A DNA stretch of 64,000 nt from Odiellus spinosus (Eukaryota; Arthropoda; Arachnida; Opiliones; Phalangiidae): assembly GCA_963920705.1 (NCBI GenBank), contig OY987226.1, forward strand, positions 18,199,600 through 18,263,599. Reading direction: 5' to 3'. Under the pieces are notes generated by a model. That model saw only the letters and a program-made list of their open reading frames with translations. It had not been told where the DNA came from and ran no database searches. How positions within the stretch are numbered: the first letter of the stretch is position 1; each line of letters begins with the position of its first letter. The position numbers were made by a program, and so were the translations under genes. Positions 2,929-29,587 of this stretch are shown here, one piece after another.

Positions 2929-3068
2929 GGTTCACACTAGAGATTTTAAAAAGCGTTTTCATCCGTTTTGGAAAGGTCAAATTGTATATAATTATTATCT
3001 TGAAACGATGATTTGAAGATTCAAAACGGTTTGTAAACGGTTTCGAAGTTACTAGTTTGAACGTAGCT
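2929..3068. mobile_element. MITE-B copy (GTTCACACTAG-type ends)
   Basis: A ~140-bp element starts with GGTTCACACTAG and ends with its imperfect complement (CTAGTTTGAACGTAGCT). The interior repeats AAACGGTTT-like stretches on both sides. It resembles the element at 62815-62996 and the fragment at 45162. It has no coding capacity. A target duplication is not obvious, so the exact ends are approximate. Confidence 0.5.
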
Positions 3069-3938
3069 CTGGTGTAGCGTTGAATATGACTGCCACGTAT
3101 TGATTATAAAGAAAATTCTTTTGTAAGATATGTTTCTCGTTCTCTCTATCGCACGCTCTCGACTAAATTGTAAATAGTCGCTTACTCAACCTCTGTGTTT
3201 TAATATGTCACGTTTTAATTTATCGATGGGTTGTTTAAACACTTTCAGTCTGTTAGTTAATCGTTTCTTATTTAATGAATTTACTCGGCGTACACACACG
3301 TACAGAAGTGTATTGTACCCGAAGGAGCCACGATGACCTTACCTAAGGCACCTCATTACGTAATTAATTTATTTTACCTTTTTACTCTCAGGCATGCTTA
3401 AGCTACGTAGTGATGCAAGCGGGAAGCATTGGATTGGTCCAAATATTATTGTTTCCTAACGTTGTTTCTTTCGGGATGGCGAATCTCGCTTAAAAAATTC
3501 AAGCGAGCTTCGGCATCCTGTAAGAAACCACAACGTATTAGGAGACAAAAATACTCTTAACGCCCCAATGCTTGCCAGACTATGTGGCTCAAGCATGTAT
3601 GCCCGAGAGGAAAGCAGGTTAAGTAAGTTAATTACACAGTGAGGTTCCTTAAGAAAGGTCAGCGACGTGGCTAATTTGGGTATCACGTGTGTGTACGCGA
3701 ATGATGTAGTAAAATCATTAAGAAAGAAGACATCAAAACTCTAATAATTAAAGAAAATGTCGCGACCCATGGTCAAAAATTACTGAATGCGCTGAATTCA
3801 CGCATTTCCTTTTGTTTTGAGTGTCAAATACTGAAAGCGATAGCTTTTTATTATTCATCCAAGTTGTAACTTTTGAGCTCGGCCAGCCCGACGAAACTCT
3901 GTTATTGAAATTCGCGATTTAACAACTACCTCCTTAAA

Positions 3939-4040
3939 CCCTCTTCAGACGAGGCATAATTAGCCGGTTTAATCAGATTTAACCGAGGTTTATATAACCT
4001 TCTCAGTTCCATAGGTTAATTATGCTTCGTCTGAAGAGGG
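3939..4040. mobile_element. Small 102-bp hairpin MITE
   Basis: The left end CCCTCTTCAGACGAGGCATA is complemented at the right end (TATGCTTCGTCTGAAGAGGG) with one mismatch, giving terminal arms of about 27 bp around a short AT-rich middle. The length and structure fit a miniature inverted-repeat transposon. No clear target duplication is visible. Confidence 0.6.
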
Positions 4041-6369
4041 TATTATAATACTTCTGGTAATTAGAGATTTTAAACATTATTAATCCATGGTAATAATGAA
4101 TTACAAAGGGAGATAGGGGTTAAACTTAAAAGAGGGCAACGGGGATGCGATATTGTGTGGGGGGGGGGGGTGTTATTAAAATACAAGATCTCGGTTTGCA
4201 AAAAAATTAAATGTTTCAATTACATCACTGATTCTCTAATTATTTCACTCATTGTGCCTGAAGAAGATCGCTTAGTCGGTCGAAAGCCATCTAATATCAA
4301 TTGGCTTGTTAAGTAATTGTATAATAATAGTTTTCTCTATGAGACCCCTTTCTTTCTATTTAACTTCGTGTAATATCGAATTCTTCTCGCGAGATTATGA
4401 AATCGACTGTAGCGTTATTGATTTTTGTCGCAGCGAAACTACAAACTTTTATTATCGATTGCTTCTATTCGTTCGATATTTTCTAGAAACACTTTCTTTA
4501 CTCCATCTTGAAATGAATCAACTGGCATTGTTCTTAATTTGATGATTGGAATTATATTGGGTTTGGTTTTAATACTTAAATGTAAACTCGCTAATTCTAA
4601 TATTATTCATAGGGAACCAGTTCTTTTTTCTTAAGGTATTAATTTTTTTCCCATAAGGAAAGTTTCGAATCACTATGAATGTTAAGCCTAAATGGAATTA
4701 ATTAGTTTTCACATTAACTTCCCAAAGACTAAATGATTTTTGGTTTTGGGCAAACTCATATCGGGAATGGCTTTAAAGGGATGTCGCCACAATTGCTGTC
4801 GTCGGAAATAAAGGGAACTAGTTTGGATCGATGGATACACGATTAGCTGCGTTCGTACCAGACACGTAGACGATTGAAACAGATCGATTTCTGCTTCGGG
4901 AACCAGTTTTATACCGATCAAACTTAGTAAAAATTACTAAAATAAGAGTGACAAAACCTATTAAAAATAACTAAAATAAGAGTGACGAATATTAGTAAAA
5001 ATTACTAAAATTAGTGAAAAAAAAAATTAGGAAAAAATTCAATTATATCCCTCCCCCCTCACCCTTTTCTTACGCAGTCAAATTACAGAAACCGAAGAAA
5101 GCTGATTTTGGGCTGCAATGTTTTACAGTCAAATGCAGCCCAAAAACCAGACATTAACACCTTGTTGTATCTCGAAAACAGCCCAAATTGTTTTATTTCG
5201 CGAATTGAATCGATATTGTGATTTTTATTTGGGGTTTCTGAAACGATAGGTGGCGATGGTGTTTTGAATTTTGAAAGTTAAAAATTGAAAACCTAATTGT
5301 GTAGAGCAATATGGCTATAGAACTTTTGAATTCAACAAATTTAAACTTAAATTAAACAGAAGACGTACACTGTGGAGTACGTTGTATACTTGAGTTCACT
5401 GAGTGAAAAAAGTACAAAAATTGTTTACACGCTAGCTCTTGAGTGGTTTCCACTCGAGCTACTGTCATTGCAAACCGTTCATTTTTGACAGGGAAGTTTC
5501 CATTAATTGGAAAGTTTTCTCTTCCGGTGACTGCTATCTAAATCAAAAGAACCGTCGCGAATAAGCGAATTACCAAAACCAGATGTAGATACTTAAAACT
5601 TAGTCATCCTTTTGAATTGTTTTGAAATATGCAAAGATTTTTACTCCATTCGCTAAATCCTCCGTGGTACTATTTCAAGTATTATATTCTAAGAATGTGT
5701 GAAATGATGGAGGGACATTTTGATTAATTTCGGTTGTTATTTAGTGGCTTTCCCTTCTCAGTTTCAATTAGGTGGTAAGGTATAGGCTTGAAATCCTCTT
5801 AGGAGCGTATGTTTCGATCGAAAAAGTAGCTCCAAACCAATCAAATTAAAGAATATTTAGTAAAAAATAAGTCGACTTTGTCCCCGTTCTTATAGTAGTG
5901 CCTCTGATTTTTTGGCGAGCTATAAGGACGAGAGGGCTTTCAAGTTCACGCTCCGGGGAAAGGATTTTGATTGGTTTCTTCTTATATGCTCTTATTAATT
6001 ACACGACATTTAATTAGTTGTTTCTTCTCGTTTATTATACCTCGATTGCTACTGGCAACTGCTATATAGAGAATTAATTTAAGCGAATTGACAAGAAAAA
6101 GTGAACCAGCGCGTCTGTTTTGAATTAGTGCTTTGACCTTTGATAGCTTTGTATTTCCGGAAATAGTTCTCGAATTTCTTATAGCCCGTTTTAAAGGGAG
6201 GGAGAAGAGGAAGATAGATTTTTTTCATTGATTCAAAAAATAATTAAGACATGTTTGACGTATAGTACAACATTCAGGAAGTGTCTTTGAATTCTACAAA
6301 AAATCCCAAACCTTGTAATTTGACATTCAATTTAAGTTTTAACTATTTATGCAATAGAAAACGTTTTTC
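4041..6369. other. Gene-free host DNA with repeat fragments
   Basis: No gene is supported. There is a G-run at 4159-4170, a short MITE-A fragment at about 4873-4922, two or three copies of an ACTAAAATAAGAGTGAC motif at 4935-5010, and a perfect 12-bp hairpin (TTTTGGGCTGCA, arms 5106-5117 and 5134-5145). The remainder shows nothing I can name. Confidence 0.5.
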
Positions 6370-6520
6370 ACAATTGTCTGACTCCGAGTTGTCACGGTCA
6401 CACAATTTTCTGAAACGGAATTGTCGTAGTTACCCAATTGTTTGACACCAAATTGTTGTCCACCGAGTTGTCGTTCTCCGAATTATCATTCATTCAATTG
6501 CCGTGATCCCATTTTACCCA
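6370..6520. repeat. Degenerate ~18-bp repeat (AATTGTC-type)
   Basis: Seven or more diverged copies of a unit like CCGAATTGTCGT follow each other with spacing near 18 bp. The array lies about 200 bp outside the left end of the palindromic element and is not repeated at its right side, so it belongs to the host flank. Confidence 0.55.
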
Positions 6521-6711
6521 TTATCTTCAGGAATAGGATAATTATACTCAAATTACATTTGTATCGCGTGAGAAATTGGTGACAGTGTCAATTTAAAGTA
6601 TGTTTTTCTGGAAAGATATAAAGACTCTTCAAAAGAATGTGACGCGGATTTATTTCCAGTTTTAAATCCCGTAGAAATAAAAATAGTAATTGACAACTCA
6701 TCTCGAACACG

Positions 6712-6717
6712 AATATA
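6712..6717. other. Target-site duplication, left (AATATA)
   Basis: The six bases AATATA directly abut the left end of the palindrome and recur exactly at 18491-18496 next to the right end. Palindromic symmetry stops precisely at the duplication. This is what an integrase or transposase with a 6-bp stagger leaves behind. Confidence 0.85.
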
Positions 6718-6741
6718 AGTAGTATGAAAATGAGCGTTTAA

Positions 6742-6800
6742 GCACAGGAGGTGCCAAGAGGTGCCGGAGGTGCCGGAGGTGCCAAGAGGTGCCGGAGGTG
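6742..6800 (+). repeat. Terminal AGGTGCC subrepeats, left
   Basis: About seven copies of an AGGTGCCGG / AGGTGCCAAG unit of 9-10 bp lie just inside the terminus, followed by a T-run. The mirrored set sits at 18408-18466. Subterminal direct repeats are common binding sites for transposition proteins, but nothing here proves that role. Confidence 0.7.
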
Positions 6801-6829
6801 CCCAATTTTTTTTTTTTTTTTTCAAAATT

Positions 6830-6902
6830 TTTTCATCCGGGTTTCGAACCCGGTACCTCATGTATGTGGGGATGACGTTTCACACCACTACACTACGTCT
6901 TC
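6830..6902 (-). ncRNA. tRNA-like SINE head / pol III promoter, left
   Basis: Read on the minus strand, there is a box A match (TAGTGTAGTGG, 6885-6895) and a box B match (GGTTCGAAACC, 6840-6850), 45 bp apart as in a tRNA. A perfect T-arm (5-bp stem CCGGG/CCCGG around TTCGAAA) follows. Flanking acceptor-stem halves do not pair and an anticodon arm is not convincing, so it is not a working tRNA gene. An A-rich run follows on the same strand, as in a tRNA-derived SINE. Transcription would run toward the terminus. Confidence 0.6.
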
Positions 6903-7354
6903 TGATCAATTATTAAACTATTTTCCATCCTTATCTATATTCTCGGTTCTTCTTATCTCTATGTTCATATATCACGCGATTGAAAGTTTAAATGATAAGG
7001 CGCGAAATCAAATGTGAATCTATAACTAATACTGAACCTATACTGAAACCTTATCTCTGCGTTTGTCTTTATCGAATTTCGCGCGGTTCTCATATCGCGT
7101 TATCACCTATGTCAGGTCTTATCTCAAAACGCACGAGGAAAAATATAAAACTTGTCAAATATTTAAGATGAAGAATTTCACATAGTAAATATAACTATAA
7201 AATGGAACTGTAAATATACGATTATTTGCATAAACTGATATATAAATGTGGAAAAATACTTAAACAAGTTGGTGAAGACCATATTTAAAACAAAATATCT
7301 ATCGTTAGGCCTAATTACCACGTGTATGAAGATTCGAAATAAATCAATAATACG

Positions 7355-7540
7355 CGGCATTGGTAAAACGTATTTCCCAAGTTCAAGTACTGATATGACG
7401 CTTGGTAAAAACCTACGCGTCATTGGTAAAACCTATTTCCCAACTCAAGTACTGATTTGACGCTGAATCGCTTAGTAAAAACCCAATACGTCATTGGTAA
7501 AACCTATTTCCCAACTTTAAGTACAGATATGACGCTTATT
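7355..7540 (+). promoter_or_regulatory. Triplicated promoter-proximal repeat, left arm
   Basis: Three copies of a 63-71-bp unit begin CATTGGTAAAAC at 7358, 7421 and 7492. Each contains TATTTCCCAA, AAGTAC and a TGACGCTT-type word. The last copy ends about 10 bp before the gene 1 TATA box, so they look like tandem activator sites for gene 1. This is inference from position and conservation. Confidence 0.55.
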
Positions 7541-7546
7541 TATGGG

Positions 7547-7610
7547 TATAAAAGCTAGGATATATTTTAGATAAGTCATTTAAAGCTGCCATCAACCGTA
7601 TTCAAGTCAT
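7547..7610 (+). promoter_or_regulatory. Gene 1 core promoter (TATA, Inr, DPE), left arm
   Basis: TATAAAAG starts at 7547. An initiator TCATT has its A at 7578, which puts the TATA box at -31. AGTCAT at 7605-7610 falls exactly at +28 to +33 and fits the DPE consensus RGWYVT. All three elements in register, of the arthropod/animal type, make a strong pol II start about 50 bp before the split start codon. Confidence 0.75.
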
Positions 7611-7627
7611 CCACAAGAACACTAAAA

Positions 7628-8501
7628 ATGTAAGTAGCATTTTACTCTAAAATTAACTTATAAATTATTTGTGCCACCCTAAATAACTTAGAAATTATTA
7701 ACCTAACCCTAAATAACTTTGAAATTTTCACTGTCCTCTTAAATAACTTAGTAATTTTTATTCCTGACATCTTATTATTAGTATAAAACCTCAATTAACT
7801 TAGCCGTTTCTATCATTTACAGGGACAACACGAACGTATTCGAAATCTCATCGAGAAAATCGGTCACAGTTACTCCCGAATGTGAAATTAGACTTGGATT
7901 TACTGATGGATCCACTGGAATTAATCTCAGCGAGGATGAGTACTTTCAAATATACCGAATGAGGGAAGAAATCACGCAATACTTCCAAAACGAGGGTGCA
8001 AGTCCTTCGTCAGTTTTCTTGGAAGGGTCAAACAATAAACGGGTGGAACTCAAGTCATACCAGGACCGGAAGATGCTTAATATCCGTGAAATGACGACGG
8101 GAAACGGGAAGAACTATGGGATGTTATTTCCCACTAAAAATGGATTCGCCATCGGAGGAGTTCTATGGGAGAAACTCTTGGAAAAGCATCAACAAGTTGA
8201 AATCATACTTAACGAAACTAAGAAAGTCTACCAAGCTATAAAGGACATAGTAGTTTCACAGCTAACGGAACTTATTAAAAACTCGTGTAACGGGTGTCTC
8301 ATTGACCATCCATCGCAATTACAGCACGATTGTTTAACCTATGATTGGGCTGAGCGTGTAGAAATGAATTTTTCAACTGCGATTAATAATTTAAATATCC
8401 AATTAATTACAGAAATTTTTAATAATTCAACTTTTTTAAGTTTCGAATTTTGTAAGCAAATGGTGACTAGAATTATTTACATTTCGAAACAATATTTGTA
8501 A
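7628..8501 (+). CDS. Gene 1: tandem PC4-like ssDNA-binding protein (spliced), left arm
   Basis: I propose coding exons 7628-7629 and 7823-8501. The 193-bp intron (7630-7822) has GTAAGT and TTACAG borders. Exon 1 supplies only AT of the start codon and exon 2 the G, giving 226 codons; without splicing the first ATG is at 7959 (180 codons). The protein shows two copies of a PC4/SUB1-like pattern. Residues ~15-50 have IR...G..TGINLSEDEYFQI. Residues ~82-121 have NIRE...PTKNGF...WEKLL. PC4 domains bind single-stranded DNA and assist transcription or repair. A possible zinc motif C-x2-C-x3-HPSQ-x2-H-x-C follows at residues 156-171. An AATAAA signal (8508-8513) comes seven bases after the stop. The core promoter, intron and poly(A) signal make this the best supported gene of the element. 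Family assignment is by pattern only. Confidence 0.72.
7650..7790 (+). repeat. ~30-bp tandem repeat inside gene 1 intron, left arm
   Basis: Four diverged units of about 30 bp, each containing TAACTTAGAAATT-like and CCCTAAAT-like words, fill most of the 193-bp intron. They also supply the AT-rich composition of the intron. The mirrored copy is at 17418-17558. Confidence 0.55.
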
Positions 8502-8507
8502 ATACAA

Positions 8508-8513
8508 AATAAA
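8508..8513 (+). terminator. Poly(A) signal of gene 1, left arm
   Basis: AATAAA lies seven bases after the gene 1 stop codon, a compact 3' end like that of a virus or small mobile element. Confidence 0.6.
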
Positions 8514-8655
8514 ATTCCGACTTTCAAACTGTTAAATATGACATTTCTTAATATTGATATCAAAAGTAGGCAAATAAAACTTTCATATTCTGTTCATATC
8601 AAATGGGTAAGGATAATTTCCCCAGAGTGGAAAGGGTGAGAAAGAGGACTTAGAA

Positions 8656-8678
8656 TTAATCAGTGACTCATTGTTTAA
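8656..8678 (+). promoter_or_regulatory. AP-1-type upstream motif, gene 2, left arm
   Basis: A 23-bp stretch with the core TGACTCA (AP-1/TRE site, 8664-8670) followed by TTTAA recurs with two mismatches at 10137-10159, in front of another promoter of the same arm. It lies ~80 bp before the gene 2 ATG. A TCATCATC stretch at 8708 could hold the start site; a clear TATA box is absent. Confidence 0.55.
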
Positions 8679-8758
8679 TTATCAAAGTTTAAGTTCTCAC
8701 CAAGCATCATCATCTCTTCCGGTAATACTAAAAGTCTTTAACTTAAGTTAGTTACATT

Positions 8759-9169
8759 ATGGTCATCTGTCGCAATTGTGGGGCTAAGTTTTCCCAAGTT
8801 GGAAGCTTACTTCAACATGCTCGAGAAAAACACGAGTATGAAGAATTCCCGTGTAAATTTTGCAACGTATACTTCACAAAGAAGGAGCACCTCACCATCC
8901 ATAGTCTATCCCGCCATAAGGAAGAAACGAGTCGTGAATCCATCCTGAAACGAGCTCGATCCATGGAATCTATCGAGAACGTTAAGAAGACGAAGATGAA
9001 CGAGACTACATCCCAGACTATCGCCATAATCGCATCTATCAACGATGTCCCGTCATCCTCCAGCGATGTCCCGTCCACTTCTACCGATGGTCCATCATCA
9101 CCCAACGATGTCTTATCACCTTCCAACGATGTCCCGATCACTTCAGCTGATGGTCCGTCCCCAACGTAG
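8759..9169 (+). CDS. Gene 2: two-finger C2H2 zinc finger protein, left arm
   Basis: This is a 136-aa protein. Two classical C2H2 fingers occupy residues 4-25 (C4-x2-C7-x12-H20-x4-H25) and 32-53 (C32-x2-C35-x12-H48-x4-H53), so it should bind DNA or RNA. A basic stretch around residues 64-80 could act as a nuclear signal. The tail (residues 95-136) is exactly six heptads of the pattern [NSTA]-D-[VG]-P-S-x-x, encoded by 21-bp tandem repeats at 9041-9166. The frame stays open after its single TAG (9167-9169) for another 244 codons into gene 3, and no AATAAA occurs between them. The mRNA probably continues through gene 3, so readthrough or a shared transcript is possible. Zinc finger identity is firm; its target is unknown. 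Confidence 0.75.
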   Translation: MVICRNCGAKFSQVGSLLQHAREKHEYEEFPCKFCNVYFTKKEHLTIHSLSRHKEETSRESILKRARSMESIENVKKTKMNETTSQTIAIIASINDVPSSSSDVPSTSTDGPSSPNDVLSPSNDVPITSADGPSPT

Positions 9170-9320
9170 CTCCAGACGTTTCATTTACCACATCATCAAA
9201 CATCCAACCCACTGAGAACCTTAACAACGACAGGAAGAATTTACATCAACCCTTCCGGCTATATGTATGTGCGAAGAACGAAATTTATTCGATGTCGGGT
9301 CGTGAATTATCACTCCACGA

Positions 9321-9348
9321 TATATATAAAAATACTGTCAACATTCAT
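9321..9348 (+). promoter_or_regulatory. Possible TATA promoter of gene 3, left arm
   Basis: TATATATAAAAA at 9321-9332 is followed by TCATC (9345-9349), about 26 bp downstream, like the starts of the other promoters in this arm. It lies inside the upstream extension of the gene 3 frame, which favours the later ATG at 9386. Confidence 0.4.
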
Positions 9349-9385
9349 CGTCCAAGACTTGGAAGAAATATTCGTAAAAAGTACA

Positions 9386-9904
9386 ATGGAGTATTACGAA
9401 GATTTTATAGATGTATACGAGGATGATGAGGACGAGTGGGATGACGTGCTGAATGATTCCTTAAACATAATTATAGATCCGAGCGTCAAGTTATCATGGT
9501 TTCAATACAATAGAGTGTTGAACACAGAATACAGTGACCCACCCCCATACTTCATAACAGGTAATCACATTATCACATCGTACTCTTCGGTGCGTAGGAA
9601 ATATTTTGAGAAGTATCGAAGATTACGTATGTGTAGCGATTGCTTCCAGCTTGAAGGCGTTATATCTTCCGAAGACGACGTTGATCACATTCAATACCAC
9701 GGATACATAAACCCCGAAAACGTAGGAGAAATAGTCACCAACGTGTTTGCTACATGGTGTAACAATTGTTTACGTACGCCCTTATTTAAATTTTTGGATG
9801 ATGTACGTTGTAAAGTATTAACTAAGTTTCATGTTGATAAAATTAATTTATTTACTACCGAAGAGAATGACGACGTACGAACGGTTATAAAACGTAGCAA
9901 ATAA
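9386..9904 (+). CDS. Gene 3: acidic CxxC/CxxC protein, left arm
   Basis: From the ATG at 9386 (context ACAATGG) the protein has 172 residues. The frame is open upstream to an ATG at 9263 (213 aa), but that extension covers a TATA-like box, so I prefer the internal start. The N-terminus is strongly acidic (residues 5-20 mostly D/E). Two cysteine pairs, C83-x2-C86 and C125-x2-C128, with histidines between them could form one zinc ribbon. I do not recognise the family. Small acidic proteins with paired CxxC motifs are frequent among accessory genes of DNA viruses and their relatives, but that is only a hint. AATAAA overlaps the stop codon and recurs at 9961. Gene 2 lies immediately upstream in the same frame. 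Confidence 0.6.
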   Translation: MEYYEDFIDVYEDDEDEWDDVLNDSLNIIIDPSVKLSWFQYNRVLNTEYSDPPPYFITGNHIITSYSSVRRKYFEKYRRLRMCSDCFQLEGVISSEDDVDHIQYHGYINPENVGEIVTNVFATWCNNCLRTPLFKFLDDVRCKVLTKFHVDKINLFTTEENDDVRTVIKRSK

Positions 9905-10136
9905 ATTTGCCATTTTCATGTATAATTTTCATATGTATAATCAATAATAGTGTTTAATTCAATAAAATGGGATATATTAATCTTTCTACTGAAAATCTCT
10001 TATTTTTTTCTAACTTCACCATCCTACGAACATTATCGCGTTTATCTCTACAAATATTTACTTATAACGAGAAAAGTTTCTTTCCTTTCATCATTTAAAA
10101 ATAAACAAGATTCAACTCAAACGTTGTTTCCCCATC

Positions 10137-10205
10137 TTAATCGGTGACTCATGGTTTAAGGTAATAGGAGGGTATAAATAGTGAATTTTTCAAATCCTAA
10201 TCATC
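10137..10205 (+). promoter_or_regulatory. AP-1 motif plus TATA promoter 4, left arm
   Basis: The shared motif with TGACTCA (10137-10159) is followed by TATAAATA (10173-10180) and TCATC with A at 10203, i.e. TATA at -30. A good 5' splice site (CG/GTAAGC, donor at 10283) follows about 80 bp downstream. No matching open frame is seen on this strand, so the transcript may be non-coding, or its coding exon was not found. Confidence 0.5.
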
Positions 10206-10309
10206 ACAACCTACAACCCCATCCTCGTCAAAAGGAAGAGAAAAAATAAATCTTCACCTACATCTCCAGAAAATTTCTATCGGTAAGCATGAAATATATT
10301 TTAACGCTG

Positions 10310-10600
10310 TTAAAATAGGTATTTACGTTAACTCTTAGTTGAAATATAAAATAGCTTTCTACACTAAACTTTAGTTTAAATATAAAATAGCTTTCTACAC
10401 TAAACTTTAGTTTAAATATAAAACAATATATTTTAACGTAGTATTTAAAGTAGTTATCTTCGCTAACCTTTAGTTTAAATTTAAAATAGTTTTCCACGCT
10501 AAACTCTAGTTTAAATATACAATAGTCTTCTACGTTAACCTATAGTTTAAATATAAAATAGATATCTACGTTAATCTTTAGATAGGGTATAGAAATTGAT
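10310..10600 (-). repeat. 36-bp tandem repeat, left arm
   Basis: About eight diverged units with the core AGTTTAAATATAAAATAG are spaced 36 bp (or nearly so) apart. Because 36 is a multiple of three, the minus strand stays open as 12-residue repeats (79 codons, 10258-10497). I treat that as a by-product of the repeat, not a gene. Confidence 0.65.
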
Positions 10601-10642
10601 TCATAGTATTCCCAAGTCAATCCATATTTAGTTGAGAATTCA

Positions 10643-10912
10643 TTATTGGGCATCAATTAGAGCGTATAGTTCAACTTTTTCAAAATCGTTATTTATCTCC
10701 AAAGTGATCATATATTTTGTCTTTAGATCAATCAACAATAGCCGAATGATGTGAAGTACACCGCAATTATCAACTCTCTTGCCCGAGATGTGATAACGAT
10801 CTCGCGTCAGTTCCAGCTCTCGGGAAACTGCTACACTTTTACATGTCCCGTGATTGCTTTCAACATAGGAAGTGTGTATTGATTCAACAAAAGAAGTATT
10901 ACCGTCTGTCAT
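10643..10912 (-). CDS. Possible small ORF 4 (89 aa), left arm
   Basis: This is an ATG-started frame of 89 codons in the only higher-complexity stretch of the inner arm, on the strand opposite genes 1-3. I recognise no domain. It contains a mixed charged, non-repetitive sequence. There is no clear promoter or AATAAA, and a 6-bp hairpin (CAGGCA/TGCCTG) lies just upstream of the ATG. It could be chance. Confidence 0.3.
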   Translation of the reverse strand: MTDGNTSFVESIHTSYVESNHGTCKSVAVSRELELTRDRYHISGKRVDNCGVLHIIRLLLIDLKTKYMITLEINNDFEKVELYALIDAQ

Positions 10913-11137
10913 TATCGAGTGAACAGGCAGTAATGCCTGATGAGCGGTTGTTCTGCCGGTGGTGTTCAGAGTTTAAATATACGATAAAAAATATTTGTGA
11001 TTGCATAAAAATAAATTGTTAATTAAAATTTGTATCGTAAATGAATCCAATCTCTGAAATTATTTATACTTAAGCCTACTATATTTAGTAAAGCCTACAA
11101 ATAACGTCGGATATCTAAGTTAGCCTATACCAATGTA

Positions 11138-11139
<2 letters not shown>

Positions 11140-11173
<34 letters not shown>
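11140..11173. repeat. AT microsatellite, left arm (34 nt)
   Basis: A 34-nt AT dinucleotide run. The matching run in the right arm (14025-14068) is 44 nt, the largest visible difference between the arms. Confidence 0.9.
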
Positions 11174-11175
<2 letters not shown>

Positions 11176-11263
11176 CAATATTCAAGCTAATCGAAATAGA
11201 ATAATAAAGGGGTATTATGAAATTGTTCGAGATAAATGAGTAAAAATGACTAAACACCGTCAT

Positions 11264-12490
11264 AAAATGTCCAAACGTCGAGAAAAAATCGTGTGAAAAA
11301 GACGAAAAATCTCAATCTTTAAGCGTGACACAAATTAAAGGCGCAAGAAACGTCTAAGTATCGGGAGAGTCTAACTAACTAGATTAAGTAACAAAGACGG
11401 AAGTGTAAGCGTCGAACGAATTGATAAAAATTGTAAATAGAAAATATGATAAATCAAACTGAAAAAAAGTACGTTGAAATAGATTAGCGGTGGGACAAAT
11501 TAATTAAACCGTGAAAAACGTCTAAATATCGATAGAAGATAATAAGGTTGTGAAAGAAAATTGTTAATGTAATGAAAACATCAAAGACGCAGATAAATGA
11601 TTGAAACCGGTGTAATATATTAAAAAGACGGGAGTAAAATTGTCTAAAGACGCAGATAAATAATTGAAACCGGTGTAATATATTAAAAAGACGGGAGTAA
11701 AATTGTCTAAGAGCCGTCATAAAATGTATAAGCGTCGAACAAAATGATCTAAAATTAGGGAAAACGATAAAAATGTTTAAGTAGTGAAATAGTTTAACAA
11801 AGTTGGAAGATAAAACGTCCAAGTGTCGGGAAAATAACGAAGATGCGGATATTAATGTCGGAGACTCAAAACTAAATAGGAAAGGAGAGGGATTTTAATA
11901 TTGAAATACCGAAAGAAGTTAACACTTGATTCGTAAAAATACAATGTTTCTGTAAAATAACAGATACTCGACAAAAGCATTATTACTCTTTGGGTTAGTT
12001 TCTTGTACGTATTTTCTACGAATACTATGCCGCGACGTGATGATAATTTAACCGCGCGTGTTTAAAATTTGAATCGCACACGTGAACCGCTTAACATAGA
12101 GATAAGCAAAAACACGACTACAGTTTCTGGAACGTTTTTAGCAAGGCTCAATCGTAAAAAGAAGCAAAATCCGCTTTCAACCTTTTCACCAGTATACGAT
12201 AAAACGACGAAAAATTTGTTTATTCGGTAAAACAAATTAACATAACCGTGAAAAAAGTCTAAATATTGGAGAAGTTAATATAAAGCGGAATGAAACGTCT
12301 AAGTTTCGGCATAAACAACAGCAATGTCGAAGAAGCGAAACAAAATAACAGGTCTAAATCAAGGGAGAAATTAACAAAGACGTAAGAAAAACATCTAATT
12401 AACGCGATAAGGAAGCGAAGACGGGAATGAAAATGTGAAGGTACGTCATAAAATATCCAAGTGTCGATTCAAATTAACAAAATCGTGGGT
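11264..12490. repeat. Degenerate GTCTAAGTGTCG repeats, left arm
   Basis: A dozen or more diverged copies of a GTCTAAGTGTCGG-like word are interspersed with ACAAAGACGGGAGTAAAA-like words, spaced roughly 50-60 bp. The exact tandem pair of 63 bp at 11583-11645/11646-11708 is the clearest case. A 112-codon open frame on the minus strand (11484-11822) is made of this repeat and is not called as a gene. The stretch at about 11870-12190 lacks the words. Confidence 0.55.
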
Positions 12491-12578
12491 AAAATTGTAT
12501 TTGTCACCATCCTCATCGTCGACGATTCTAACCTAACCTAACTTCGCGAAATTACATCAGGATGAATGGCGGGGCGCC

Positions 12579-12616
12579 TCTTTTCAATCTCCTTGGCGGA
12601 TCGCCAAGGAGTTGAC
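12579..12616. other. Asymmetric central spacer with small hairpin
   Basis: The 38 nt between the arms are not symmetric with them. They contain their own perfect hairpin: CTCCTTGGCG (12589-12598), a GAT loop, and CGCCAAGGAG (12602-12611). GC-rich arm ends (GGGGCGCC / GGCGCCCC) border it. Such a tip could be the turn-around point of a fold-back replication event. Confidence 0.8.
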
Positions 12617-12709
12617 GGCGCCCCGCCATTCATCCTGATGTAATTTCGCGAAGTTAGGTTAGGTTAGAATCGTCGACGATGAGGATGGTGACAAATACAA
12701 TTTTACCCA

Positions 12710-13935
12710 CGATTTTGTTAATTTGAATCGACACTTGGATATTTTATGACGTACCTTCACATTTTCATTCCCGTCTTCGCTTCCTTATCGCGTTAATTAG
12801 ATGTTTTTCTTACGTCTTTGTTAATTTCTCCCTTGATTTAGACCTGTTATTTTGTTTCGCTTCTTCGACATTGCTGTTGTTTATGCCGAAACTTAGACGT
12901 TTCATTCCGCTTTATATTAACTTCTCCAATATTTAGACTTTTTTCACGGTTATGTTAATTTGTTTTACCGAATAAACAAATTTTTCGTCGTTTTATCGTA
13001 TACTGCAGGTGAAAAGGTTGAAAGCGGATTTTGCTTCTTTTTACGATTGAGCCTTGCTAAAAACGTTCCAGAAACTGTAGTCGTGTTTTTGCTTATCTCT
13101 ATGTTAAGCGGTTCACGTGTGCGATTCAAATTTTAAACACGCGCGGTTAAATTATCATCACGTCGCGGCATAGTATTCGTAGAAAATACGTACAAGAAAC
13201 TAACCCAAAGAGTAATAATGCTTTTGTCGAGTATCTGTTATTTTACAGAAACATTGTATTTTTACGAATCAAGTGTTAACTTCTTTCGGTATTTCAATAT
13301 TAAAATCCCTCTCCTTTCCTATTTAGTTTTGAGTCTCCGACATTAATATCCGCATCTTCGTTATTTTCCCGACACTTGGACGTTTTATCTTCCAACTTTG
13401 TTAAACTATTTCACTACTTAAACATTTTTATCGTTTTCCCTAATTTTAGATCATTTTGTTCGACGCTTATACATTTTATGACGGCTCTTAGACAATTTTA
13501 CTCCCGTCTTTTTAATATATTACACCGGTTTCAATTATTTATCTGCGTCTTTAGACAATTTTACTCCCGTCTTTTTAATATATTACACCGGTTTCAATCA
13601 TTTATCTGCGTCTTTGATGTTTTCATTACATTAACAATTTTCTTTCACAACCTTATTATCTTCTATCGATATTTAGACGTTTTTCACGGTTTAATTAATT
13701 TGTCCCACCGCTAATCTATTTCAACGTACTTTTTTTCAGTTTGATTTATCATATTTTCTATTTACAATTTTTATCAATTCGTTCGACGCTTACACTTCCG
13801 TCTTTGTTACTTAATCTAGTTAGTTAGACTCTCCCGATACTTAGACGTTTCTTGCGCCTTTAATTTGTGTCACGCTTAAAGATTGAGATTTTTCGTCTTT
13901 TTCACACGATTTTTTCTCGACGTTTGGACATTTTA
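12710..13935. repeat. Degenerate GTCTAAGTGTCG repeats, right arm
   Basis: Mirror image of the inner repeat field of the left arm, including the 63-bp tandem pair at 13490-13615. Confidence 0.55.
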
Positions 13936-14022
13936 TGACGGTGTTTAGTCATTTTTACTCATTTATCTCGAACAATTTCATAATACCCCTTTATTATTCT
14001 ATTTCGATTAGCTTGAATATTG

Positions 14023-14024
<2 letters not shown>

Positions 14025-14068
<44 letters not shown>
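14025..14068. repeat. AT microsatellite, right arm (44 nt)
   Basis: Forty-four nt of AT repeat, ten longer than its partner at 11140-11173. Real divergence of the arms or a polishing error would both produce this. Confidence 0.9.
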
Positions 14069-14070
<2 letters not shown>

Positions 14071-14295
14071 TACATTGGTATAGGCTAACTTAGATATCCG
14101 ACGTTATTTGTAGGCTTTACTAAATATAGTAGGCTTAAGTATAAATAATTTCAGAGATTGGATTCATTTACGATACAAATTTTAATTAACAATTTATTTT
14201 TATGCAATCACAAATATTTTTTATCGTATATTTAAACTCTGAACACCACCGGCAGAACAACCGCTCATCAGGCATTACTGCCTGTTCACTCGATA

Positions 14296-14565
14296 ATGAC
14301 AGACGGTAATACTTCTTTTGTTGAATCAATACACACTTCCTATGTTGAAAGCAATCACGGGACATGTAAAAGTGTAGCAGTTTCCCGAGAGCTGGAACTG
14401 ACGCGAGATCGTTATCACATCTCGGGCAAGAGAGTTGATAATTGCGGTGTACTTCACATCATTCGGCTATTGTTGATTGATCTAAAGACAAAATATATGA
14501 TCACTTTGGAGATAAATAACGATTTTGAAAAAGTTGAACTATACGCTCTAATTGATGCCCAATAA
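14296..14565 (+). CDS. Possible small ORF 4 (89 aa), right arm
   Basis: Second copy of the uncharacterised 89-codon frame, identical in translation to the one at 10643-10912. It is followed by the 36-bp repeat field and has no obvious poly(A) signal. Weak support. Confidence 0.3.
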   Translation: MTDGNTSFVESIHTSYVESNHGTCKSVAVSRELELTRDRYHISGKRVDNCGVLHIIRLLLIDLKTKYMITLEINNDFEKVELYALIDAQ

Positions 14566-14607
14566 TGAATTCTCAACTAAATATGGATTGACTTGGGAAT
14601 ACTATGA

Positions 14608-14898
14608 ATCAATTTCTATACCCTATCTAAAGATTAACGTAGATATCTATTTTATATTTAAACTATAGGTTAACGTAGAAGACTATTGTATATTTAAACT
14701 AGAGTTTAGCGTGGAAAACTATTTTAAATTTAAACTAAAGGTTAGCGAAGATAACTACTTTAAATACTACGTTAAAATATATTGTTTTATATTTAAACTA
14801 AAGTTTAGTGTAGAAAGCTATTTTATATTTAAACTAAAGTTTAGTGTAGAAAGCTATTTTATATTTCAACTAAGAGTTAACGTAAATACCTATTTTAA
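14608..14898 (+). repeat. 36-bp tandem repeat, right arm
   Basis: Mirror of 10310-10600. Two adjacent units at about 14795-14866 are nearly identical, suggesting recent slippage before the arms were duplicated, since both arms share it. Confidence 0.65.
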
Positions 14899-15002
14899 CA
14901 GCGTTAAAATATATTTCATGCTTACCGATAGAAATTTTCTGGAGATGTAGGTGAAGATTTATTTTTTCTCTTCCTTTTGACGAGGATGGGGTTGTAGGTT
15001 GT

Positions 15003-15071
15003 GATGATTAGGATTTGAAAAATTCACTATTTATACCCTCCTATTACCTTAAACCATGAGTCACCGATTAA
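15003..15071 (-). promoter_or_regulatory. AP-1 motif plus TATA promoter 4, right arm
   Basis: Mirror of the left-arm promoter 4: TGACTCA-containing motif at 15049-15071, TATA box at 15028-15035, and start near 15005 on the minus strand. Confidence 0.5.
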
Positions 15072-15303
15072 GATGGGGAAACAACGTTTGAGTTGAATCT
15101 TGTTTATTTTTAAATGATGAAAGGAAAGAAACTTTTCTCGTTATAAGTAAATATTTGTAGAGATAAACGCGATAATGTTCGTAGGATGGTGAAGTTAGAA
15201 AAAAATAAGAGATTTTCAGTAGAAAGATTAATATATCCCATTTTATTGAATTAAACACTATTATTGATTATACATATGAAAATTATACATGAAAATGGCA
15301 AAT

Positions 15304-15822
15304 TTATTTGCTACGTTTTATAACCGTTCGTACGTCGTCATTCTCTTCGGTAGTAAATAAATTAATTTTATCAACATGAAACTTAGTTAATACTTTACAA
15401 CGTACATCATCCAAAAATTTAAATAAGGGCGTACGTAAACAATTGTTACACCATGTAGCAAACACGTTGGTGACTATTTCTCCTACGTTTTCGGGGTTTA
15501 TGTATCCGTGGTATTGAATGTGATCAACGTCGTCTTCGGAAGATATAACGCCTTCAAGCTGGAAGCAATCGCTACACATACGTAATCTTCGATACTTCTC
15601 AAAATATTTCCTACGCACCGAAGAGTACGATGTGATAATGTGATTACCTGTTATGAAGTATGGGGGTGGGTCACTGTATTCTGTGTTCAACACTCTATTG
15701 TATTGAAACCATGATAACTTGACGCTCGGATCTATAATTATGTTTAAGGAATCATTCAGCACGTCATCCCACTCGTCCTCATCATCCTCGTATACATCTA
15801 TAAAATCTTCGTAATACTCCAT
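15304..15822 (-). CDS. Gene 3: acidic CxxC/CxxC protein, right arm
   Basis: Second copy of the 172-aa acidic protein with cysteine pairs at residues 83/86 and 125/128, identical in translation. The same alternative upstream start exists at 15945 (213 aa), and the same TATA-like stretch lies in the extension. Both copies being intact argues that the duplication is young or that both are kept. Confidence 0.6.
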   Translation of the reverse strand: MEYYEDFIDVYEDDEDEWDDVLNDSLNIIIDPSVKLSWFQYNRVLNTEYSDPPPYFITGNHIITSYSSVRRKYFEKYRRLRMCSDCFQLEGVISSEDDVDHIQYHGYINPENVGEIVTNVFATWCNNCLRTPLFKFLDDVRCKVLTKFHVDKINLFTTEENDDVRTVIKRSK

Positions 15823-16038
15823 TGTACTTTTTACGAATATTTCTTCCAAGTCTTGGACGATGAATGTTGACAGTATTTTTATATATATCGTGGAGTGATA
15901 ATTCACGACCCGACATCGAATAAATTTCGTTCTTCGCACATACATATAGCCGGAAGGGTTGATGTAAATTCTTCCTGTCGTTGTTAAGGTTCTCAGTGGG
16001 TTGGATGTTTGATGATGTGGTAAATGAAACGTCTGGAG

Positions 16039-16449
16039 CTACGTTGGGGACGGACCATCAGCTGAAGTGATCGGGACATCGTTGGAAGGTGATAAGACAT
16101 CGTTGGGTGATGATGGACCATCGGTAGAAGTGGACGGGACATCGCTGGAGGATGACGGGACATCGTTGATAGATGCGATTATGGCGATAGTCTGGGATGT
16201 AGTCTCGTTCATCTTCGTCTTCTTAACGTTCTCGATAGATTCCATGGATCGAGCTCGTTTCAGGATGGATTCACGACTCGTTTCTTCCTTATGGCGGGAT
16301 AGACTATGGATGGTGAGGTGCTCCTTCTTTGTGAAGTATACGTTGCAAAATTTACACGGGAATTCTTCATACTCGTGTTTTTCTCGAGCATGTTGAAGTA
16401 AGCTTCCAACTTGGGAAAACTTAGCCCCACAATTGCGACAGATGACCAT
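16039..16449 (-). CDS. Gene 2: two-finger C2H2 zinc finger protein, right arm
   Basis: Second copy of the 136-aa protein with two C2H2 fingers and six heptad repeats in the tail. The single in-frame TAG (16039-16041) before the open run into gene 3 is present here too, so the stop predates the duplication or was copied with it. A 109-codon frame on the plus strand is only its shadow. Confidence 0.75.
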   Translation of the reverse strand: MVICRNCGAKFSQVGSLLQHAREKHEYEEFPCKFCNVYFTKKEHLTIHSLSRHKEETSRESILKRARSMESIENVKKTKMNETTSQTIAIIASINDVPSSSSDVPSTSTDGPSSPNDVLSPSNDVPITSADGPSPT

Positions 16450-16529
16450 AATGTAACTAACTTAAGTTAAAGACTTTTAGTATTACCGGAAGAGATGATG
16501 ATGCTTGGTGAGAACTTAAACTTTGATAA

Positions 16530-16552
16530 TTAAACAATGAGTCACTGATTAA
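16530..16552 (-). promoter_or_regulatory. AP-1-type upstream motif, gene 2, right arm
   Basis: Mirror of 8656-8678 with the TGACTCA core, located about 80 bp before the gene 2 ATG. Confidence 0.55.
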
Positions 16553-16694
16553 TTCTAAGTCCTCTTTCTCACCCTTTCCACTCTGGGGAAATTATCCTTA
16601 CCCATTTGATATGAACAGAATATGAAAGTTTTATTTGCCTACTTTTGATATCAATATTAAGAAATGTCATATTTAACAGTTTGAAATTCGGAAT

Positions 16695-16700
16695 TTTATT
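16695..16700 (-). terminator. Poly(A) signal of gene 1, right arm
   Basis: AATAAA on the minus strand, seven bases after the stop codon of the second gene 1 copy. Confidence 0.6.
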
Positions 16701-16706
16701 TTGTAT

Positions 16707-17580
16707 TTACAAATATTGTTTCGAAATGTAAATAATTCTAGTCACCATTTGCTTACAAAATTCGAAACTTAAAAAAGTTGAATTATTAAAAATTTCTGTA
16801 ATTAATTGGATATTTAAATTATTAATCGCAGTTGAAAAATTCATTTCTACACGCTCAGCCCAATCATAGGTTAAACAATCGTGCTGTAATTGCGATGGAT
16901 GGTCAATGAGACACCCGTTACACGAGTTTTTAATAAGTTCCGTTAGCTGTGAAACTACTATGTCCTTTATAGCTTGGTAGACTTTCTTAGTTTCGTTAAG
17001 TATGATTTCAACTTGTTGATGCTTTTCCAAGAGTTTCTCCCATAGAACTCCTCCGATGGCGAATCCATTTTTAGTGGGAAATAACATCCCATAGTTCTTC
17101 CCGTTTCCCGTCGTCATTTCACGGATATTAAGCATCTTCCGGTCCTGGTATGACTTGAGTTCCACCCGTTTATTGTTTGACCCTTCCAAGAAAACTGACG
17201 AAGGACTTGCACCCTCGTTTTGGAAGTATTGCGTGATTTCTTCCCTCATTCGGTATATTTGAAAGTACTCATCCTCGCTGAGATTAATTCCAGTGGATCC
17301 ATCAGTAAATCCAAGTCTAATTTCACATTCGGGAGTAACTGTGACCGATTTTCTCGATGAGATTTCGAATACGTTCGTGTTGTCCCTGTAAATGATAGAA
17401 ACGGCTAAGTTAATTGAGGTTTTATACTAATAATAAGATGTCAGGAATAAAAATTACTAAGTTATTTAAGAGGACAGTGAAAATTTCAAAGTTATTTAGG
17501 GTTAGGTTAATAATTTCTAAGTTATTTAGGGTGGCACAAATAATTTATAAGTTAATTTTAGAGTAAAATGCTACTTACAT
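16707..17580 (-). CDS. Gene 1: tandem PC4-like ssDNA-binding protein (spliced), right arm
   Basis: Second copy of gene 1 with coding exons 17580-17579 and 17385-16707 on the minus strand and an intron at 17386-17578 with the same GTAAGT/TTACAG borders. The start codon is again split 2+1 across the intron, giving 226 codons. Both PC4-like repeats and the C-x2-C...HPSQ-x2-H-x-C motif are intact and identical. An mRNA from either arm would give the same protein, and the two genes point at each other across the palindrome centre. Confidence 0.72.
17418..17558 (-). repeat. ~30-bp tandem repeat inside gene 1 intron, right arm
   Basis: Mirror of 7650-7790; four diverged ~30-bp units within the intron. 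Confidence 0.55.
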
Positions 17581-17597
17581 TTTTAGTGTTCTTGTGG

Positions 17598-17661
17598 ATG
17601 ACTTGAATACGGTTGATGGCAGCTTTAAATGACTTATCTAAAATATATCCTAGCTTTTATA
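17598..17661 (-). promoter_or_regulatory. Gene 1 core promoter (TATA, Inr, DPE), right arm
   Basis: Mirror of the left arm: TATAAAAG at 17654-17661, initiator A at 17630, DPE-like AGTCAT at 17598-17603, all in register on the minus strand. Confidence 0.75.
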
Positions 17662-17667
17662 CCCATA

Positions 17668-17853
17668 AATAAGCGTCATATCTGTACTTAAAGTTGGGAA
17701 ATAGGTTTTACCAATGACGTATTGGGTTTTTACTAAGCGATTCAGCGTCAAATCAGTACTTGAGTTGGGAAATAGGTTTTACCAATGACGCGTAGGTTTT
17801 TACCAAGCGTCATATCAGTACTTGAACTTGGGAAATACGTTTTACCAATGCCG
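17668..17853 (-). promoter_or_regulatory. Triplicated promoter-proximal repeat, right arm
   Basis: Mirror of 7355-7540: three 63-71-bp units upstream of the gene 1 TATA box. Confidence 0.55.
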
Positions 17854-18305
17854 CGTATTATTGATTTATTTCGAATCTTCATACACGTGGTAATTAGGCC
17901 TAACGATAGATATTTTGTTTTAAATATGGTCTTCACCAACTTGTTTAAGTATTTTTCCACATTTATATATCAGTTTATGCAAATAATCGTATATTTACAG
18001 TTCCATTTTATAGTTATATTTACTATGTGAAATTCTTCATCTTAAATATTTGACAAGTTTTATATTTTTCCTCGTGCGTTTTGAGATAAGACCTGACATA
18101 GGTGATAACGCGATATGAGAACCGCGCGAAATTCGATAAAGACAAACGCAGAGATAAGGTTTCAGTATAGGTTCAGTATTAGTTATAGATTCACATTTGA
18201 TTTCGCGCCTTATCATTTAAACTTTCAATCGCGTGATATATGAACATAGAGATAAGAAGAACCGAGAATATAGATAAGGATGGAAAATAGTTTAATAATT
18301 GATCA

Positions 18306-18378
18306 GAAGACGTAGTGTAGTGGTGTGAAACGTCATCCCCACATACATGAGGTACCGGGTTCGAAACCCGGATGAAAA
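18306..18378 (+). ncRNA. tRNA-like SINE head / pol III promoter, right
   Basis: Box A is at 18313-18323, box B at 18358-18368, and the perfect T-arm at 18355-18371, followed by A-rich sequence with a long A-run and then the terminal GGCACCTCC subrepeats. It mirrors 6830-6902. The putative acceptor halves GAAGACG and ATGAAAA do not pair, so it is a tRNA-derived promoter, not a tRNA. Confidence 0.6.
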
Positions 18379-18407
18379 AATTTTGAAAAAAAAAAAAAAA
18401 AATTGGG

Positions 18408-18466
18408 CACCTCCGGCACCTCTTGGCACCTCCGGCACCTCCGGCACCTCTTGGCACCTCCTGTGC
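18408..18466 (-). repeat. Terminal GGCACCTCC subrepeats, right
   Basis: Mirror of the left subterminal repeats; about seven 9-10-bp units next to the right terminus. Confidence 0.7.
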
Positions 18467-18490
18467 TTAAACGCTCATTTTCATACTACT

Positions 18491-18496
18491 AATATA
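18491..18496. other. Target-site duplication, right (AATATA)
   Basis: Exact copy of 6712-6717. Removing the element and one copy restores a continuous host site. Confidence 0.85.
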
Positions 18497-29073: not shown

Positions 29074-29587
29074 TTTAAAATCGTTCCGTCTAGGCTTGTT
29101 TGAATGCACCCGCCAATTAGGCCTAAAATCCTAGCATAAAAAAATGCTAGATGTCACTGAGGGAGCGATCGATCTCTGATTGGCTAATATAGTAGTGTTG
29201 CAAAATCATTGTTCGTGGAGTCGTGAATCGGCTTACTAAAGCCGTTCTTTTTGCGATAATAGTTAAAACAAAGCTTCGTTTGTAAAGATTTAAATAAGTT
29301 AGTCTTTTATTTGATATTTTTAAACAAGTTTTTTGAGTTTATGCCATCGAAGTTGCCTTATATATAAAACTACAATTTAAAATTGAATATACTAGGTAAG
29401 CCTTGGTTGGTTTAATTTTAAGGCTTATTAAAATAAGCAATTAAGCATACAAATTTCACACGAATGACGAATCACGATGATTTTTTTTTTTTTTTTTTTT
29501 TTTTTGGAAATTTCAAATAACCATTATGATTAAGAAATCTCTGAATAAGGGAAATATATAACTACTTTAAAAGTGAATTAAGTAAGA
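29074..29587. promoter_or_regulatory. REC114/TMEM33 divergent promoter region
   Basis: These 514 bp separate two start codons on opposite strands. They contain an inverted CCAAT box (GATTGG near 29179), a perfect hairpin (CTAGCAT/ATGCTAG, 29131-29150) and a T-run near 29480-29505. No TATA box is placed clearly for either gene, as expected for a housekeeping bidirectional promoter. UTR exons may lie inside. Confidence 0.45.

What the first reader, a model, noticed from the sequence alone, without database searches (positions are those of the whole stretch)
6712..18496. 11.8-kb all-TIR palindrome with Maverick-type 6-bp target duplication but no Maverick core genes
Seen: symmetry ends exactly where AATATA is duplicated on both sides; termini are 5'-AG/CT-3'. 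Known: Maverick/Polinton elements make 6-bp duplications and have AG-type termini. Unusual: the two arms make up all but 38 nt of the element, and it carries an unrelated gene set (PC4-like, C2H2, CxxC proteins). This looks like an undescribed non-autonomous or satellite-like relative.
Basis: partly seen in the sequence, partly recalled or inferred. Interest (0 to 1): 0.88.

Follow-up and report, generated by a model that had tools for sequence, protein, structure and literature searches.

The report
Giant palindromic offshoot of Maverick virus-transposon
A mirror-image 11.8-kb DNA element in an animal genome carries the ends of a Maverick (a virus-like jumping element) but none of its core enzymes, and half of the twelve elements in that genome whose two ends could be paired are giant mirror-image derivatives, as if defective virus genomes had folded back, copied themselves and kept jumping.

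Summary
The palindrome is real: 11,773 bp (6718-18490), arms of 5.86 kb differing by one SNP and two indels, flanked by AATATA. It starts AGTAGT and ends ACTACT, the commonest end motif of vertebrate Mavericks, which also make 6-bp target duplications (PMC8097293 passages). In its own genome the terminus has 48 matches; I could pair twelve elements. Eight of 12 have exact 6-bp duplications; the other four match crosswise in two pairs. Five are 14.6-15 kb with ordinary 0.2-0.3 kb repeats; the one of these read for genes (E1) has integrase, ATPase, polymerase-like ORFs and the same PC4-like gene. Six of 12 have arms of 4 kb or more: left-end type (E2, E3, E5, E11) and right-end type (E0 here, E10). 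E2, E3 and E5 share one exact junction, so the folded form itself moved. The PC4-like gene has dN/dS about 0.12 against E1. Best reading: a non-autonomous snap-back derivative of a Maverick, mobilised in trans (inferred). E0's centre is a dispersed repeat, so the fold-back site is unresolved.

The parts
6712..6717 (.). left target-site duplication AATATA
   Evidence: sequence
18491..18496 (.). right target-site duplication AATATA
   Evidence: sequence
6718..12578 (+). left arm, 5,861 bp; begins AGTAGTATGAAAATGAG
12617..18490 (-). right arm, 5,874 bp; ends ACTACT
12579..12616 (.). centre, 38 nt; folds with a 3-nt loop and an asymmetric bubble (TCTTT opposite C)
   Evidence: 100 nt folded, stem included: z -14
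11174..14034 (.). inner 2.86 kb, absent from the 95% identical relative at C5 (L054); its 191-bp centre is a dispersed repeat
7823..8501 (+). exon 2 of PC4-like gene (left copy); predicted intron 7630-7822 splits the ATG; TATA box 7547; AATAAA 8508
   Evidence: splicing predicted from sequence only
16707..17385 (-). PC4-like gene, right copy
   Evidence: symmetry
8759..9169 (+). C2H2 ORF; resembles the N-terminal zinc-finger region of the polymerase-like ORF of the full Maverick E1
   Evidence: tblastx 50% over 62 aa
16039..16449 (-). C2H2 ORF, right copy
9386..9904 (+). CxxC ORF 1; TATA 9321, AATAAA 9900; no family
15304..15822 (-). CxxC ORF 1, right copy
   Evidence: symmetry
10750..11022 (+). 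CxxC ORF 2 (probable later exon; start codon not placed); TATA 10173, donor 10283, AATAAA 11010
14186..14458 (-). CxxC ORF 2, right copy
   Evidence: symmetry
8656..8678 (+). shared 23-bp upstream motif TTAATCRGTGACTCATKGTTTAA
10137..10159 (+). second copy of the 23-bp motif, upstream of CxxC ORF 2

Best explanation
The element is a non-autonomous snap-back (copy-back) derivative of a Maverick/Polinton. A Maverick replicates by protein priming at its AGTAGT ends; during that, a strand from the right half folded back and was copied into itself, giving a molecule with the same end, hence an origin and an integrase site, at both tips. Such a self-complementary genome is copied and integrated by polymerase and integrase supplied in trans by full Mavericks of the same genome, and integration makes the 6-bp duplication. 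Shown: the palindrome, the ends, the duplication, a full relative with the same ends, the recurrence of left-end and right-end palindromes, one junction at several sites, low dN/dS of the PC4-like gene. Inferred: protein priming, fold-back as the way of formation, supply in trans, packaging. The PC4-like product (predicted tandem ssDNA-binding-type fold) probably binds displaced single strands.
For: Ends AGTAGT//ACTACT and 6-bp duplication as in Mavericks. Twelve paired elements with these or near-equal ends: exact 6-bp duplications in 8 of 12, crosswise matches in the other 4. E1 carries rve integrase (2.4e-11), Adeno_IVa2-type ATPase (1.5e-4) and polymerase-like ORFs; a piece of E2 an adenovirus-type protease (7.4e-4, below cut-off). 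E0's first 635 bp are 98.4% identical to E1's right end and its PC4 region 83.6%. E2 reads as E1's left 4.77 kb followed by E1's left 8.1 kb inverted; the same 90-nt junction is exact in E2, E3 and E5. E10 is a right-end palindrome with PC4 region and polymerase-like ORFs, arms 6.94 kb at 99.83%. L054 is an E0-type palindrome: arms 99.7% alike but 95.1% to E0. PC4 dN 0.061, dS 0.496; PC4/PUR-like fold, best E 3.6e-3. AAV makes comparable snap-back genomes (PMC8235507 passages).
Against: E0's 191-bp centre occurs at nine full-length places (E0 included), four of them 100% identical, and L054 lacks the inner 2.86 kb: the present centre may be a later insertion into an (AT)n centre, so the hairpin need not be the fold-back site. 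No replication or transposition was observed. Arm identity could also come from gene conversion. The polymerase was recognised by recalled motifs only; no Pfam hit, and the PF03175 genome search did not complete. The CxxC ORFs have no counterpart in E1-E10.
Confidence: 0.72

Rival explanations
1. A Maverick-derived non-autonomous element with ordinary long TIRs whose arms were extended and homogenised by gene conversion or break repair after insertion, not by fold-back replication.
For: Arms nearly identical; TIR lengths among the paired elements vary from 0.2 to 6.9 kb.
Against: E2, E3 and E5 share one exact junction in different flanks, so the folded form existed before those insertions; duplications lie outside both arms; left-end and right-end palindromes both occur.
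Confidence: 0.15
2. An integrated dimer (head-to-head replication intermediate) of a linear hairpin-ended virus of parvovirus type, joined at a telomere-like hairpin in the centre.
For: Centre folds as an almost perfect hairpin with a 3-nt loop and asymmetric bubble.
Against: No NS1- or capsid-like Pfam hit in the ORFs scanned; Maverick ends and a full Maverick relative; L054 has no such hairpin centre; the hairpin is a dispersed repeat.
Confidence: 0.05
3. The centre (about 2.86 kb) is a separate palindromic repeat that landed in the (AT)n centre of an older 9-kb Maverick palindrome; the element is a nest of two palindromes. Compatible with the best explanation.
For: L054, 95.1% identical, has the (AT)n tract as its centre and lacks the block; nine full-length copies of the centre; (AT)n is itself self-complementary.
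Against: 681 bp of the block lies in another Maverick-ended element, E9, and the hairpin in left-type Maverick loci L055 and L056, so it may belong to the Maverick family.
Confidence: 0.45
4. Assembly artefact (fold-back read or chimera).
For: E3/E5 and E6/E7 have crosswise flanks, so near-identical elements may be mis-joined somewhere in this assembly.
Against: Different flanks, 6-bp duplication, three arm differences, a diverged sister palindrome (L054).
Confidence: 0.04

Closest known systems
Maverick/Polinton (adintovirus-like) elements
   Same: (AGT)2//(ACT)2 ends, 6-bp target duplication, genes pointing to the centre; shares terminus and right-end PC4 gene with the genome's full copy E1.
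   Different: No polymerase, integrase, ATPase, protease or capsid hit in the ORFs scanned; arms of 5.86 kb against TIRs of 46-1,447 bp and 11.8 kb against 12.7-24.6 kb in intact vertebrate Mavericks (PMC8097293 passages).
AAV snap-back genomes (5'- and 3'-SBG)
   Same: Self-complementary derivatives of either end of a viral genome, symmetric or with an unpaired loop, that replicate with helper-supplied proteins (PMC8235507 passages).
   Different: Those are packaged parvovirus genomes with Rep-dependent ends; here the forms are integrated in an animal genome with Maverick ends.
Adenovirus symmetric recombinants, and transpovirons (recalled, no call)
   Same: Palindromic or satellite-like linear DNAs dependent on a protein-primed or giant virus helper.
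   Different: Not endogenous multi-copy elements; not compared here.
Foldback/Galileo elements (recalled, no call)
   Same: Arms make up nearly the whole element.
   Different: Unrelated ends and duplication length, and no viral genes (all recalled).

Membership tests
Maverick/Polinton | (AGT)2//(ACT)2 or (AG)3 end motif | tested here: met
   AGTAGT 6718, ACTACT 18485-18490; definition
Maverick/Polinton | 6-bp target-site duplication | tested here: met
   AATATA; family: 8 of 12 exact
Maverick/Polinton | protein-primed PolB | tested here: not met
   none in the 16 of 31 arm ORFs scanned; the longest unscanned ORFs are short; blastn/tblastx of the arm against E1 finds only the zinc-finger N-terminus of its polymerase-like ORF
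Maverick/Polinton | rve integrase | tested here: not met
   tblastx of the arm against E1's left half, which holds the integrase, printed no row over 60 columns; present in E1
Maverick/Polinton | ATPase, protease, capsid genes | tested here: not met
   (same limits)
Non-autonomous derivative of this genome's Mavericks | shares ends and part of the interior with a full copy | tested here: met
   98.4% over 635 bp and 83.6% over the PC4 region with E1
Snap-back derivative | self-complementary copy of one end of the parent | tested here: met
   E0 arms match the right end for terminus, PC4 and C2H2 parts, not for the CxxC and inner parts; E2/E3/E5/E11 are of the left end
Snap-back derivative | arises and amplifies during replication with helper proteins | not testable with these tools
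   no replication data
Parvovirus dimer | NS1 and capsid genes, hairpin telomeres | tested here: not met
   no such hit; hairpin is a dispersed repeat

The most novel reading that the evidence does not exclude
Mavericks of this animal live with a heritable population of defective-interfering-like satellites: left-end and right-end snap-back genomes that are integrated, remobilised and, in the PC4/CxxC (E0, L054, L057) lineage, maintained as palindromes over long evolutionary time with their own constrained gene, possibly damping the full Mavericks by competing for replication or by giving hairpin RNA from transcripts that run to the centre.
Probability: 0.3. Interest if true: 0.88.

Novelty: new variant of a known kind. 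Interest (0 to 1): 0.74.

Why it matters
Viral particles of Mavericks had not been observed, says the abstract of PMC8097293 (2021; seen in the listing). Snap-back palindromes of either end are what viruses that replicate as linear strands throw off; finding them integrated, in several copies with one shared junction, is genomic evidence that Mavericks replicate outside the chromosome as such DNA and that defective forms can be inherited. It makes the replication mode of Mavericks testable in a living animal.

Tried and rejected
Searches for relatives outside the genome: the PC4-like protein found five relatives (P0001-P0005, 45-69% identity), all on contigs of 0.9-1.3 kb; CxxC ORF 1 none; viral-contig scans with PC4, its alignments, the C2H2 ORF, CxxC ORF 1 and a zinc-motif pattern gave pattern hits in some (76, 30, 6 and 6 stretches) but no confirmed relative; 18 exact matches of a 16-nt terminus there were not followed; genome contigs 17 pattern hits, none confirmed; phages none, queried with P0005. 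No Rfam match at gathering score. A tandem-PC4 repeat was not supported by profile comparison (E 0.16), but the predicted structure shows two sheet-helix units, and its best PDB matches are PUR repeats and PC4/Sub1, none at E 0.001 or below. CxxC ORFs 1 and 2 are not alike. Thioredoxin matches to CxxC ORF 1 (best 0.0072) were judged chance (no Pfam support). Weak Pfam hits below cut-off, such as COX14 in a repetitive reverse ORF (3e-5), were set aside. No listing of the paper searches showed a title or abstract on palindromic or non-autonomous Mavericks; held library only, most listed papers not opened. Unpaired terminus matches were fetched as 11 single pieces (L049-L059); they are incomplete and not counted among the twelve; further unpaired matches (C18, C183, C15, C274, C113) were not fetched. 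76 of the 116 first-look candidates were never scored.
Full report
Observation. The inverted repeat is as described: arms 6718-12578 and 12617-18490 around 38 nt, with one SNP, one (AT)n length difference and one 3-bp difference between arms. AATATA lies on both sides. Two 6-mers at fixed places agree by chance with probability about 6e-4 in this window, and AGTAGT has a frequency of 1.4e-4. If arms diverged freely since insertion, one substitution means roughly 8,500-30,000 generations at assumed rates of 1e-8 to 2.8e-9; gene conversion would make it older.

Gene content. Each arm carries, pointing to the centre, a PC4-like gene (Pfam PC4 8.1e-7), a two-finger C2H2 ORF, and two CxxC ORFs. The PC4-like gene has a TATA box (7547), a predicted 193-nt intron splitting the ATG, and AATAAA within 7 nt of its stop; the CxxC ORFs have TATA boxes (9321, 10173) and AATAAA at or within 12 nt of their stops. 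Two genes share a 23-bp upstream motif seen in the window only there and on the other arm. The longest stop-free stretches, 244 and 239 codons, exceed the largest of 500 shuffles (180); the third, 140, was reached in 21 of 500. No Maverick core domain was found in the 16 of 31 stop-to-stop ORFs (50 aa or more) that I scanned.

Family in its own genome. The window is G000:C2:18199600-18263599 of a 443-Mb, 286-contig genome; a REC114 gene at 28465-29130 marks host DNA; that the host is an animal, probably an insect, is my inference. The terminal 188 bp have 48 matches, with only 40 of 116 candidates scored. By position and orientation I paired twelve elements: E0 (this one), E1 C11:9293237, E2 C11:9368745, E3 C232:84681, E4 C11:11154826, E5 C2:11935003, E6 C2:12876353, E7 C5:12313864, E8 C17:997121, E9 C5:2256204, E10 C12:8005088, E11 C1:13991153. 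Ten begin AGTAGTATGAAAATGAG; E9 and E10 begin AGTAGATATAAAAGG.

Target duplications, read by eye from the printed ends. Exact 6-bp copies: E0 AATATA, E1 GGTTAT, E2 TATAAG, E4 CATTTC, E8 GGTCAG, E9 AGAGTT, E10 TGTATC, E11 AGGGTG, that is 8 of 12. The other four match crosswise: E3 has CTTGTG/CGCGGT and E5 CGCGGT/CTTGTG; E6 has TACATT/GTCGTA and E7 GTCGTA/TACATT: exchange between near-identical elements, or misassembly.

Full Mavericks. E1, E4, E6, E7 and E8 are 14.6-15 kb with TIRs of 0.2-0.3 kb at 85-96%. Of these five only E1 was read for genes: integrase (rve 2.4e-11, chromodomain 8.4e-6), ATPase (Adeno_IVa2 1.5e-4, just above its cut-off), PC4-like protein (1.8e-6), and ORFs that I take for capsid proteins by place and for polymerase by recalled DTDS and NNLYG motifs, without a Pfam hit. 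The C5-type protease hit (7.4e-4, below cut-off) is on a piece of E2. E1's polymerase-like ORF begins with zinc fingers like the C2H2 ORF of E0 (tblastx 50% over 62 aa). So the outer part of E0's arm corresponds to the right end of a Maverick: terminus 98.4% over 635 bp, PC4 region 83.6%. The CxxC part matches none of E1-E10; it was found only in L051 (its first 0.35 kb), L054 and L057.

Palindromes recur. Arms of 4 kb or more occur in 6 of 12: E0 (5.86 kb), E10 (6.94 kb, 99.83%), E2, E3, E5 (4.74 kb, 99.66-99.75%), E11 (4.04 kb, 99.43%). E9 has 0.6 kb at 99.35%. E10 is a right-end palindrome that holds a PC4 region (split over two frames) and polymerase-like ORFs. E2 is E1's left 4.77 kb followed by E1's left 8.1 kb inverted; the parents share a short word (TATCG) at the joint, and the 90-nt joint is exact in E2, E3 and E5. 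One joint and three duplications (TATAAG; CTTGTG and CGCGGT, the last two inferred from the crosswise flanks) mean that the folded form moved after it was made. Among 11 single pieces, L049 and L050 share another left-end joint in opposite orientation; L052, L054, L056, L057 and L058 hold inverted arms of 1.5 kb or more as far as fetched, L059 arms of 0.5 kb, L055 a 0.56-kb palindrome at 69%, L051 only weak repeats (59-62%), L053 none.

E0's lineage. L054 (C5) is a palindrome over 458-9234 with 99.68% self-identity, yet 95.1% to E0; its left tip is missing, so no duplication could be read. L057 (C9) has arms 92-99.6% alike, by scoring scheme and stretch, and matches E0 at 62-82% in parts. Arms thus resemble each other more than they resemble the other elements, as expected if arms are renewed together. 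L054's centre is the (AT)n tract; the inner 2.86 kb of E0 is missing there. E0's 191-bp centre is found full-length at nine places including E0, four at 100%, and parts of the inner block lie in E9, L055 and L056. I could not fetch the copies nor map their outer edges. Hence the hairpin may be a later guest, and (AT)n, which is self-complementary, an alternative fold-back site.

The PC4-like protein. Between E0 and E1, dN is 0.061 and dS 0.496 over 225 codons without stops (NG86, no test of significance; the BLAST alignment has 676 columns for 675 bases on each side, so a compensated gap was ignored): constraint. AlphaFold2 (6 sequences, mean pLDDT 86.2) gives two sheet-helix units and a helical C-terminal part; best PDB matches are human PURA repeats I-II (E 3.6e-3) and MoSub1/PC4 (6.8e-3 and weaker), all above 0.001. 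A single-strand binding role is likely, not shown.

Mechanism. Mavericks encode a protein-primed polymerase, and repeated end motifs are thought to serve jumping back (PMC8097293 passages). A displaced strand that folds and copies itself yields a genome with an origin at both tips whose displaced strands re-fold at once into duplex. AAV makes symmetric and asymmetric snap-back genomes of either end (PMC8235507 passages); E0/E10 and E2/E3/E5/E11 are the like of these two classes. Formation by fold-back and help in trans are inferences.

Status. It is not a Maverick by gene content; it is a non-autonomous derivative of one. Papers were seen as passages only: PMC8097293, PMC8235507, PMC12220804 (6-bp duplications by rve integrase), PMC4061559, PMC6431247, PMC6035795. 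Searches found no paper on palindromic or non-autonomous Mavericks in the held library (88 listed two papers on other subjects, 89 none); that does not show that none exists.

Noticed in passing
G000:C232:84681-97533 with C2:11935003-11947855; C2:12876353-12890911 with C5:12313864-12328447: Flanks of near-identical Mavericks match crosswise in two pairs: reciprocal exchange through the elements or misassembly.
   Followed up: partly
window 12540-12730: The hairpin centre is a dispersed repeat: nine full-length matches in the genome (this one included), four at 100%; identity of the repeat unknown.
   Followed up: partly
window 6837-6895 (-) and mirror copy: tRNA-like stretch with Pol III box A and box B look (motifs recalled), Rfam tRNA 11.1 bits, far below threshold, followed by A-rich DNA and GGCACC repeats; SINE head or Pol III gene near the tip.
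   Followed up: partly
window 28465-29130 (-): Host gene REC114-like (Pfam 6.8e-22).
   Followed up: no
window 8747-9904 (+): The C2H2 ORF and the next ORF lie in one frame, separated by a single stop codon.
   Followed up: no
window 12528-12542: Three CTAAC units (insect-type telomere repeat, recalled) beside the central hairpin; TAACCTAAC occurs in the window only inside the element.
   Followed up: no
window 52133-52446: 97-nt inverted repeat with 120 nt between arms, MITE-like.
   Followed up: no
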